Of a stretch of DNA of 64,000 nt, positions 26,405 through 36,266 are shown piece by piece. Source of the stretch: Prochlorococcus sp. AG-388-D03 (lineage in GTDB: Bacteria; Cyanobacteriota; Cyanobacteriia; PCC-6307; Cyanobiaceae). The stretch is taken from contig QCGN01000004.1 of the NCBI GenBank assembly GCA_003279875.1, positions 1 through 64,000 of the forward strand. The letters run 5' to 3'. The position numbers were made by a program, and so were the translations under genes. The stretch's first letter is position 1, and the number at the start of each line of letters is the position of its first letter. The notes under the pieces were generated by a model. That model was not told where the DNA came from. It did not search any database and saw only the letters and a program-made list of their open reading frames with translations.

Positions 26405-26545
26405 ATGGAACCTATTTACGTTGGAGATTTAATACCTTCTATATCTTCCTATCAGAAAGTTATTGATAAATATGAAAAAGCAATAAAACAAGGGGAATTT
26501 TATGAGGAGCCAATTGGAGAAGATTCAATTTATCCAGATTGGTAA
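26405..26545 (+). CDS. Small conserved hypothetical protein
   Basis: 46 aa (MEPIYVGDLIPSISSYQKVI...), acidic, ending EDSIYPDW. It lies 3 nt before the next gene on the same strand, so it is probably coupled to it, and 63 bp after the DUF1330 gene. Confidence 0.5.
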   Translation: MEPIYVGDLIPSISSYQKVIDKYEKAIKQGEFYEEPIGEDSIYPDW

Positions 26546-26548
26546 AAA

Positions 26549-26737
26549 ATGCTCACTACAAAAATTACTTATGCCTTAGCAGATTGGATAAGAGAATGGC
26601 GAAAATGTAGAAATGAAGATCCCTCTCTTGATGATTGTATAAAGTTTGCGGAATGGAAAATAGAAGATTATAAATTAACAGAAAGTGATCGAATGATAAT
26701 TGAGAGTATTCTTCTTTATGAAACTGAAAAAAGTTAA
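26549..26737 (+). CDS. Small conserved hypothetical protein
   Basis: 62 aa (MLTTKITYALADWIREWRKC...). Soluble, acidic and tryptophan-rich in its first third, helical throughout. Probably cotranscribed with the 46-aa gene just upstream. Function unknown. Confidence 0.6.
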   Translation: MLTTKITYALADWIREWRKCRNEDPSLDDCIKFAEWKIEDYKLTESDRMIIESILLYETEKS

Positions 26738-26759: not shown

Positions 26760-27182
26760 CATAAAAATTTAATAGTTTATAAAACAATAAAGCATCAAAA
26801 TCCTCTTATAAATCGCTAAAAAAGTAAATCAGCATAATTACGGATTTACATGAAATAGAGATAGGAGTAATTTAAAGATGTTGAGTTAGGAGGCAATCTA
26901 AATGATTGATATTCCGCCTGAAATTTAGCAAATTTACAAATATAGGAAGCGTATTCCTGACAATGGGATTACTCGAAAAGTAAAGTTCAATCAATTAGTC
27001 TGATAAGACTTCGCTCTATAATTACCAGCGACAAAAAGGGACTAAAATTATCGAGAATTATCCCCTAACCCACTTATTTAAAGCTCATGAGTAAATGAAC
27101 TTTATTTAATGTATTATTTAAATCCTGAAAGTAGAAAATAACAAATTAAAAAGAGGACTGTAATTACAGACCTCTTTTTTTT
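26760..27182 (+). ncRNA. Candidate noncoding RNA locus
   Basis: A 518-bp gap between genes that ends in a strong rho-independent terminator (27148-27182). The middle is less AT-rich than other spacers and holds inverted segments, for example AGGAGGCAATC near 26888 against GATT...CCGCCT near 26905-26919. No long reading frame is present. I could not match 6S RNA, tmRNA, RNase P RNA, SRP RNA or Yfr1 by their conserved motifs. Transcript start and strand (plus, from the terminator) are inferred. Confidence 0.45.
27148..27182 (+). terminator. Rho-independent terminator
   Basis: Stem AAGAGG-A-CTGT / ACAG-A-CCTCTT with an AATT loop and one A-A mismatch, followed by eight T residues. It lies 74 nt before the pip start and more than 400 nt after the last gene, so it must end an unannotated plus-strand transcript or a very long 3' UTR. 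Confidence 0.85.
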
Positions 27183-27255
27183 ATGGTTTTATAGTAACCA
27201 ATGTTTATTATTAGATAATATAAATTTTCTAATTAAAGTAAATAAATTTTATAAA

Positions 27256-28206
27256 ATGGAAGAAACAAAATTATTTCCCTCAATAGAGCCAAGAGAAAAA
27301 GGTTTTTTACAAGTAAGTAAAATCCATTCTATCTATTGGGAAAGATCTGGTAATCCAAATGGAAAAAAGATATTAGTAATCCATGGGGGGCCTGGAGGAG
27401 GAAGTCAACCAAGATATAGAAGATATTTTAATCCAAAAAAATTTGATATTGTTCAATTTGATCAAAGAGGCTGCGGTAATTCAAGACCTTTTTCAGAATT
27501 AAAAGAAAATACAACAGGAGATTTAGTAAGTGATATTGAGAAATTAAGAATAAATTTGAATATAGATTCTTGGCATTTGTTTGGGGGTTCATGGGGTTCT
27601 ACTTTAGCTTTGATTTATGCAATAAAAAATCCATCAAAAGTTAAAAGTATGACCTTAAGAGGAATATTTTTGTGTAGAAAATTCGAACTATTATGGTTTT
27701 ATCAATATGGTGCAAGTGAGATATTTCCCGATGAGTTTGAAAAATATATCTCTGTAATACCTCAGGATGAAAGGGAGAATTTAATAGCTTCTTTTTATAA
27801 ATATCTAACATCTAAAGATATTGAACTTAGATCAAAAGCTGCCGCTGCCTGGACAAATTGGGAGCTTTCTACAAGTCATCTTATTAAAAGAGATTTTAAT
27901 GTTGGTAAAAGTAAAACTAATTCCTTTTCAGATGCTTTTGCAAGAATAGAGTGTCATTATTTTATCAATAACATCTTCTTAGAAGATGATTTCATTTTGA
28001 AAAATATAAAGATTATAGAATCTATACCAACTAGGATAATCCAAGGAAGATACGATGTAGTTTGTCCTGTTAGGAGTGCTTGGGATCTTAGTAAAAAATT
28101 ACTAAATTCAGAGTTGATTATCGTAGATGATGCTGGACATTCTATGAGTGAAAAAGGAATCACAATTAAATTACTAAATTCAGTTGAAAGATTAGAAAGT
28201 TTTTAG
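27256..28206 (+). CDS. pip: Proline iminopeptidase
   Basis: 316-aa alpha/beta-hydrolase of family S33 that releases N-terminal proline from peptides. Oxyanion loop HGGPGGG at 43-49, FDQRGCGNSRP, nucleophile Ser112 in GGSWGS, Asp in GRYDVVCP and His in DDAGHSM are all present. Length is typical. Cytoplasmic. It follows the terminator of the noncoding locus. Confidence 0.93.
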   Translation: MEETKLFPSIEPREKGFLQVSKIHSIYWERSGNPNGKKILVIHGGPGGGSQPRYRRYFNPKKFDIVQFDQRGCGNSRPFSELKENTTGDLVSDIEKLRINLNIDSWHLFGGSWGSTLALIYAIKNPSKVKSMTLRGIFLCRKFELLWFYQYGASEIFPDEFEKYISVIPQDERENLIASFYKYLTSKDIELRSKAAAAWTNWELSTSHLIKRDFNVGKSKTNSFSDAFARIECHYFINNIFLEDDFILKNIKIIESIPTRIIQGRYDVVCPVRSAWDLSKKLLNSELIIVDDAGHSMSEKGITIKLLNSVERLESF

Positions 28207-36175: not shown

Positions 36176-36266
36176 CTCCTGAACTTGCTCAAGTCCCCGT
36201 CCTTTGACTTGAGTCGTACTGCGGTCTATCAAGTGGTAGATCGGACGATTTGGTAGCTTTAGCTAC
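36176..36266 (-). promoter_or_regulatory. Pseudoknotted leader RNA, glutamine-II (downstream-peptide) riboswitch candidate
   Basis: On the minus strand three hairpins follow the predicted start: GTAGC/GCTAC (36253-36266), GATCTACC/GATAGACC around ACTT (36223-36242) and a perfect 8-bp CTCAAGTC/GACTTGAG (36188-36213). GGACG in the loop of the last (36198-36202) is complementary to CGTCC (36243-36247), giving a pseudoknot. It is far more GC-rich than its surroundings and leads into a strong SD and a tiny DUF4278 ORF. This arrangement matches the downstream-peptide motif known from Prochlorococcus/Synechococcus. Class assignment is by architecture, not by covariance search. Confidence 0.6.

What the first reader, a model, noticed from the sequence alone, without database searches (positions are those of the whole stretch)
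26760..27182. Orphan transcript with strong terminator, probably an unassigned noncoding RNA
A 518-bp gap ends in a textbook terminator, contains less AT-rich and self-complementary segments, and matches no standard RNA by its core motifs. Picocyanobacteria have many Yfr RNAs of unknown role.
Basis: partly seen in the sequence, partly recalled or inferred. Interest (0 to 1): 0.55.

Follow-up and report, generated by a model that had tools for sequence, protein, structure and literature searches.

The report
Yfr8/Yfr9 RNA pair with hidden micro-gene
The spacer holds a known pair of overlapping Prochlorococcus small RNAs, but the one that ends at the terminator also seems to carry a tiny gene for an eight-amino-acid peptide, whose start and whose promoter box recur in several other small RNAs that were described as non-coding.

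Summary
The transcript and its terminator are real, but not unassigned. This is Yfr8 (+ strand, about 26880-27183) with its antisense partner Yfr9 (- strand, about 27106-26815). Rfam RF02360 scores 246.8 bits, and both RNAs were mapped in Prochlorococcus MED4 in 2008 (PMC2518516).

The new part is on the Yfr8 strand. Nine bases after the mapped start lies a Shine-Dalgarno site, then an 8-codon ORF, MIDIPPEI. The start MI[DE]xPPE recurs in the Yfr11/Yfr16 family, in a second high-light transcript, and in a low-light-clade RNA that is probably Yfr103. In 15 distinct versions found without an ORF pattern, changes fall on third codon positions and codon 4, plus three singletons. All 104 distinct high-light promoters carry a 24-bp dyad ending 39-41 nt before the Shine-Dalgarno site, against 2 of 520 shuffles with as good a match at any position. 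The dyad also precedes Yfr19.

Covariation supports a fold that keeps the Shine-Dalgarno site paired. A consistent peptide ORF in Yfr9, the 2008 toxin candidate, was not found.

Best reading: a micro-mRNA under a shared operator, overlapped by an antisense RNA. Translation, function and regulator are untested.

The parts
26825..26848 (.). 24-bp dyad box TAAATCnGnATnnnnACnGATTTA, at -55..-32 of the Yfr8 start; with the adjacent A-run (T-run on the minus strand) also the likely Yfr9 terminator
   Evidence: 0 mismatches here; spacing; T-run on minus in 115 of 120 HLI/II-type, 0 of 9 HNLC-type and 0 of 6 group-2 homologs by a threshold of 6 A in 9, 4 of the 9 HNLC-type having 5 A
26868..26873 (+). 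TAATTT, probable -10 element of Yfr8
   Evidence: TANNNT at -14..-5 in 129 of 135 homologs
26880..27183 (+).
   Evidence: homology to MED4 339952..340241
26889..26893 (+). Shine-Dalgarno site GGAGG, predicted paired with CCGCC (probability unpaired 0.01 for the four G)
26902..26928 (+). micro-ORF ATG ATT GAT ATT CCG CCT GAA ATT TAG, MIDIPPEI
26959..27068 (+). covarying structured core (long-range GGGAU/AUCCC, three-way junction, AGUCU-GAUA-AGACU hairpin)
   Evidence: model R1 hit
27148..27183 (+). Yfr8 terminator
26815..27106 (-). Yfr9 antisense transcript; RF02360 match covers 26880-27106
   Evidence: homology to MED4 complement(339887..340176); the 3' end is transferred from MED4
27256..28206 (+). 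pip, prolyl aminopeptidase, conserved neighbour, not part of the unit
   Evidence: TIGR01249, 393.2 bits; downstream of Yfr8 in 100 of 102 main loci, the other two not assessable

Best explanation
The spacer encodes Yfr8 (+) and its antisense partner Yfr9 (-). Yfr8 is best seen as a micro-mRNA, or dual-function RNA, rather than a pure non-coding RNA. Shown by comparison: a fixed dyad box in its promoter, a Shine-Dalgarno site and a micro-ORF beginning MI[DE]xPPE, a covarying fold that pairs the Shine-Dalgarno site, and a terminator. Inferred: a regulator, possibly redox-linked, binds the box and drives or represses a group of such transcripts (Yfr8, Yfr11, Yfr16, others). Inferred: initiation is limited because GGAGG is paired with the Pro-Pro codons (CCNCC), so translation depends on the 5' hairpin opening; ribosomes reaching Pro-Pro-Glu would pause and thereby set the fold or lifetime of the RNA, or the peptide itself acts. 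Inferred: Yfr9, made from the opposite strand and raised early in phage infection in MED4, pairs with the 5' domain of Yfr8 and shuts off or destabilises it.
For: Identity: RF02360 246.8 bits; found in 210 of 266 genomes of the genus, 78 of 87 good ones. ORF: in 110 loci fetched with the RNA model and not with an ORF pattern, 108 read MI[DE]xPPEI, one has GTG for ATG (VIEIPPEI) and one MIDSSPEI. Mini-ORFs found only through the box (5 loci) or through published Yfr11/Yfr16 coordinates (2 loci) all begin MI[DE]SPP[EQ]. In these 15 distinct 7-codon strings third positions vary at codons 2, 3, 5, 6 and 7, codon 4 varies freely, and three first-position singletons occur. Box: 104 of 104 distinct high-light promoters, at most 3 mismatches, 39-41 nt before GGAGG; 2 of 520 shuffles reach 3 mismatches. 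Same position before the mapped starts of MED4 Yfr8, Yfr11 and Yfr19, and of Yfr16 with 3 mismatches. Fold. Light and DCMU response of Yfr11, Yfr19 and Yfr16 (PMC2518516, passages). Yfr8 decays more slowly than Yfr9, 19.7 against 6.9 min (PMC2897979, passages).
Against: No ribosome or peptide data. GGAGG pairs with CCNCC, so the Pro-Pro codons may partly reflect RNA pairing. The 5' module may be shared by descent, so the transcript classes are not fully independent. The low-light loci were found with a pattern that fixes ATGAT, GA and CC-CC, so their conservation at those sites is not evidence. Strand test of shared pairs inconclusive: 16 G-U against 10 A-C cells. Yfr8 itself is not named among the DCMU-responsive RNAs in the passages seen. 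The 104 promoters include 72 near-identical MIDSPPEI ones.
Confidence: 0.7

Rival explanations
1. Yfr8 is a structured non-coding RNA; the ORF is only a by-product of a conserved 5' hairpin in which GGAGG pairs with CCNCC.
For: The 5' hairpin is predicted strongly, GGAGG/CCNCC pairs never vary in 30 sequences and the helix next to it covaries.
Against: ATG (once GTG) is kept at the loop edge although the spacer to GGAGG varies from 6 to 11 nt in the high-light promoters. Codons 2, 3 and 7 lie outside the CCNCC pairing yet vary at third positions. The same start occurs in transcripts that Rfam files elsewhere (Yfr11) or not at all.
Confidence: 0.17
2. Type I toxin-antitoxin pair with reversed roles: Yfr8 is the stable, translation-locked message and Yfr9 the labile antisense RNA.
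For: Decay times 19.7 (Yfr8) and 6.9 min (Yfr9) in MED4; Shine-Dalgarno site paired; 5' end can also pair with a downstream segment (72.5% of cells paired, four of eight pairs with double changes); shorter 180- and 220-nt forms reported.
Against: Peptides are 8-30 residues and not obviously membrane-spanning; no toxicity known; Yfr9's terminator T-run is missing in 5 of 9 HNLC-type and all 6 group-2 homologs.
Confidence: 0.1
3. The 2008 proposal: a peptide encoded in Yfr9 is the toxin and Yfr8 its antitoxin.
For: Authors' suggestion (PMC2518516, section 11).
Against: In 129 distinct homologs the longest ORF of the Yfr9 strand ranges from 21 to 58 codons and starts with TTG in 127; no ORF of one length or frame is kept, and I could not find a 44-codon ORF within the MED4 Yfr9 coordinates.
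Confidence: 0.03
4. Yfr8 is a transcription attenuator with a Pro-Pro leader peptide for the downstream prolyl aminopeptidase gene.
For: pip follows on the same strand, 356-391 nt after GGAGG, in 100 of 102 main loci, two not assessable.
Against: 0 of 9 HNLC-type loci have pip within the flank; in the loci whose ORFs I listed a convergent gene follows instead.
Confidence: 0.04

Closest known systems
Yfr8/Yfr9, Rfam RF02360 (Prochlorococcus MED4, PMC2518516)
   Same: Sequence, structure, neighbours, overlap on both strands
   Different: Rfam's model lies on the Yfr9 strand; the Yfr8 micro-ORF and promoter box were not mentioned in the passages and sections I saw
Yfr11/Yfr16, RF02363
   Same: Box, Shine-Dalgarno site and MIDSPPE start
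   Different: Shorter RNA (138-149 nt); different 3' part; ORF of 13 codons
Yfr103 (PMC5069720, passages)
   Same: Low-light loci L388-L404 fit its reported size (277-333 nt here for 16 of 17, start assumed, against 290-328), clades and an imperfect palindrome at -29..-58 (box core here about -50 to -35)
   Different: Identity not tested by sequence; none found in 400 kb each of three other genomes
Yfr19, RF02366
   Same: Same box 31 nt before its mapped start
   Different: No mini-ORF of this type seen
Dual-function RNAs such as SgrS/SgrT and RNAIII
   Same: Short transcript with an ORF near the 5' end
   Different: ORF far shorter; no target or peptide function known

Membership tests
Rfam RF02360 Yfr8 | Score above the curated cut-off | tested here: met
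   246.8 bits, cut-off 40, full model 1-226
Rfam RF02360 Yfr8 | Both transcripts present | not testable with these tools
   Shown for MED4 by Northern and 5'RACE, inferred here by homology
Dual-function RNA | ORF under coding constraint | tested here: met
   caveat of GGAGG/CCNCC pairing
Dual-function RNA | ORF translated | not testable with these tools
   No ribosome profiling or proteomics on hand
Dual-function RNA | Separate base-pairing target | not tested
   No target prediction was run
Type I toxin-antitoxin | Overlapping antisense RNA | tested here: met
   By homology to MED4; Yfr9 3' end features not kept in 5 of 9 HNLC-type and 6 of 6 group-2 homologs
Type I toxin-antitoxin | Small hydrophobic toxin peptide | tested here: not met
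   Judged from the sequences only: Yfr8 ORF 8 residues; group-2 ORFs 23-30 residues, rich in K/R; no kept ORF in Yfr9
Type I toxin-antitoxin | Toxicity and neutralisation | not testable with these tools
   Needs an experiment
Leader-peptide attenuator of pip | Regulated gene downstream in all family members | tested here: not met
   0 of 9 HNLC-type loci
Yfr103 (low-light loci L388-L404) | Sequence match to published Yfr103 | not testable with these tools
   No Yfr103 sequence seen; size and palindrome position agree

The most novel reading that the evidence does not exclude
Yfr8, the Yfr11/Yfr16 family, a further high-light transcript and Yfr103 are one family of micro-mRNAs of marine picocyanobacteria, built from a shared 5' module (dyad operator, Shine-Dalgarno site, micro-ORF MI[DE]xPPE) joined to different structured 3' parts. 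[quoted passage not shown]
Probability: 0.5. Interest if true: 0.85.

Novelty: new variant of a known kind. Interest (0 to 1): 0.66.

Why it matters
The function of Yfr8/Yfr9 and of Yfr103 is unknown in the papers seen. A shared operator and a shared micro-ORF would join several separately named 'non-coding' RNAs of the commonest phototrophs into one regulon, give the regulator a defined binding site to fish with, and turn the question of what these RNAs do into a direct test: remove one start codon. It also moves attention from the Yfr9 strand, on which both the Rfam model and the 2008 toxin idea rest, to the Yfr8 strand.

Tried and rejected
Cis-attenuator of pip: attractive because the leader has Pro-Pro codons and pip is a prolyl aminopeptidase, rejected because pip is absent beside 9 of 9 HNLC-type loci. 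Readthrough of the UAG into the following in-frame codons: rejected because the motif CCGAGAATGGGA is kept in a different reading frame in the group-2 paralogs, so it is an RNA motif (read by eye). Strand assignment by G-U against A-C pairs: inconclusive, 16 against 10 cells in shared pairs; consensus folding slightly favours + (-52.4 against -47.5). Phage origin: blastn against phages gave no match. Two viral-contig scans gave 26 and 96 stretches. I looked at all 26 and judged them chance matches in coding DNA. Of the 96, the list and the files showed 80, all of which I looked at and judged unrelated phage ORFs; the other 16 were not seen. Low-light profile in 400 kb each of three genomes: no significant hit, which neither confirms nor excludes Yfr103. 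Genomes without Yfr8: of nine examined, pip was found in two (G105, which has a group-2 copy, and G174), so most lack the region rather than the RNA alone. The codon table (21 strings) used a pattern that fixes several codon positions; I replaced it by the pattern-free set, which also brought back one locus with MIDSSPEI that one search had dropped.

Full report
What is there. The gap between the 62-codon ORF (26549-26737) and pip (27256-28206) is 518 bp. cmscan places Rfam RF02360, Yfr8/9, on the minus strand at 26880-27106 with 246.8 bits against a cut-off of 40, model 1-226. The 2008 paper gives Yfr8 as 339952..340241 and Yfr9 as complement(339887..340176), both by Northern and 5'RACE (PMC2518516, sections 7 and 11 and passages read). 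The + terminator at 27148-27183 ends Yfr8. In MED4 Yfr9 rises 1-3 h after phage infection while Yfr8 stays constant; decay times are 19.7 min for Yfr8 and 6.9 min for Yfr9 (PMC2897979, passages).

Distribution. RF02360 is found in 210 of 266 genomes of the genus, 78 of 87 of the good ones, and in 62 of 400 genomes drawn from the family, all in this genus out of 59 genera. A covariance model of the core built here (R1) gives 211 of 265 and 63 of 400, again one genus. HNLC-type genomes carry diverged copies, and weak hits there proved to be a second group of paralogs, L082-L085, L126 and L251, with the same parts but longer ORFs such as MVFNPPENPRKDYLLKEKPRMGLR.

Structure. On 30 homologs including six group-2 paralogs, a + strand fold of 44 pairs has 90.4% of cells paired, 19 pairs with changes on both sides (shuffles 11.2) and 64 such cells (16.5), none of 500 shuffles as high; sliding the partners lowers pairing to 28.9-54.6%. 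The helices join the 5' end with the stop-codon region, GGAGG with CCRCC, a hairpin around the start codon, and the core. The 5' end can also pair with CCUAACUCA downstream; this alternative has 72.5% of cells paired, four of eight pairs with double changes, and would compete with the local hairpin. The window RNA folds at -66.2 kcal/mol, with the four G of GGAGG unpaired with probability 0.01. Whether selection acts on the + or the - strand fold could not be decided from G-U against A-C pairs, 16 against 10.

The micro-ORF. Yfr8 loci were fetched with the RNA model, not with an ORF pattern. Of 111 such loci in the main and HNLC sets, 110 have the anchor GGAGGCAATC; L072, cut by a contig end, does not. 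In 108 of the 110 the next codons read MI[DE]xPPEI and stop; one has GTG for ATG and one reads MIDSSPEI. The dyad box search, which knows nothing of ORFs, led to five further short transcripts, each with GGAGG and an ORF: MIDSPPEEFNYKI, MIDSPPEELDYKIYI, MIESPPQNLN, MIESPPEKSIRLV and MIDSPPEKSIRLV. The published coordinates of MED4 Yfr11 and Yfr16 hold MIDSPPENLMRLV and MIDSPPEKFIRLV. Three of the five box-found loci are hits to the Yfr11 family, RF02363; two are in no Rfam family. The 15 distinct 7-codon strings of this pattern-free set vary at the third positions of codons 2, 3, 5, 6 and 7 (synonymous, except Asp/Glu at codon 3), freely at codon 4, and in three first-position singletons: GTG start, Ser for Pro at codon 5, Gln for Glu at codon 7. 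I take this as coding constraint; the pairing of GGAGG with CCNCC could explain codons 5 and 6 but not 2, 3 and 7.

Wider family. The pattern GGAGG-N4..16-ATGATHGA-N4-CCNCC matches 44 of 320 Cyanobiaceae genomes, 27 of 28 in this genus and 17 of 292 in 14 other genera; the backwards pattern matches in none of the 320 rows. The pattern itself fixes much of the motif, so in those 17 loci only what lies outside it counts: Glu after Pro-Pro, a following stop within 9-14 codons, a conserved 3' part and a terminator. Their length, with the start assumed nine bases before GGAGG, is 277-333 nt in the 16 of 17 where the terminator pattern was found, and a box-like core lies about -50 to -35. Yfr103 is reported as 290-328 nt, seven paralogs in Synechococcus CC9605 making 55.2% of its mdRNA-Seq reads, with homologs in low-light Prochlorococcus and a palindrome at -29 to -58, function enigmatic (PMC5069720, passages). 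I infer that these loci are Yfr103; I saw no Yfr103 sequence, and 400 kb each of three other genomes gave no significant hit.

The box. TAAATCnGnATnnnnACnGATTTA stands at 26825-26848. All 104 distinct high-light promoters of such ORFs have it with at most 3 mismatches, ending 39-41 nt before GGAGG; shuffled upstream stretches reach 3 mismatches in 2 of 520. These rows are not independent: 72 are MIDSPPEI promoters. In the 17 low-light loci the best match has 4-7 mismatches but lies at 40-42 nt in all 17, against 35 of 680 shuffles at that place. In MED4 the box ends 31-32 nt before the mapped starts of Yfr8, Yfr11 and Yfr19. Yfr11 and Yfr19 fall more than twofold on light and rise with DCMU, and Yfr16 follows the same trend (PMC2518516, passage), which hints at a redox-linked regulator. 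Yfr9's T-run beside the box is present in 115 of 120 HLI/II-type, 0 of 9 HNLC-type (4 of them have five A) and 0 of 6 group-2 homologs, so the box is kept where it no longer looks like a Yfr9 terminator.

Mechanism. Shown: transcription units by homology, box, Shine-Dalgarno site, ORF constraint, fold, terminator. Inferred: a regulator at the box; translation limited by the 5' hairpin and possibly by a Pro-Pro-Glu pause; control of Yfr8 by Yfr9 through pairing. The toxin idea of 2008 rested on an ORF in Yfr9; in 129 distinct homologs the longest Yfr9-strand ORF ranges from 21 to 58 codons, begins with TTG in 127, and none of 44 codons was found in the MED4 coordinates. A leader for pip is disfavoured, since pip follows in 100 of 102 main loci (two not assessable) but in 0 of 9 HNLC-type ones.

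Literature limits. 'Yfr8'/'Yfr9' occur in four papers of the library, two of them relevant. MIDSPPE and MIDTPPE occur in none. A search for Prochlorococcus, Yfr, dual-function and peptide gave one paper, whose passages do not treat these RNAs. Subscription papers and supplements were not seen, so the micro-ORF may be noted there.

Noticed in passing
G000 contig C3:35438-35461 (L357); L356, L367, L370, L372 in relatives: The same dyad box precedes a 50-codon ORF, MRSTMNWLSKMLESMANAFIHPIKNDLPPSIGAHAYSSIPLKRKIRRRFS, with no Pfam match: a further candidate member of the regulon.
   Followed up: partly
G000 contigs C3:568, C3:11228 and C27:11389: Three more SD plus MI[DE]SPP mini-ORFs in the own genome, each with the box about 40 nt upstream; the two on C3 hit Rfam Yfr11.
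   Followed up: partly
window 36188-36250 (-): Glutamine-II riboswitch, RF01704, 54.2 bits.
   Followed up: no
window 26405-26545 and 26549-26737 (+): Two small ORFs of 46 and 62 codons upstream, without a Pfam or NCBIfam match but matched in many relatives.
   Followed up: no
L388-L404, just downstream of the box-like core: A second palindrome, such as TTTTGTAGCAACTGCTACAAAA, in the low-light promoters; a similar one precedes a protein gene in L573.
   Followed up: no
Rfam RF02360: The family named Yfr8 is modelled on the Yfr9 strand, by comparison with the 2008 coordinates.
   Followed up: yes
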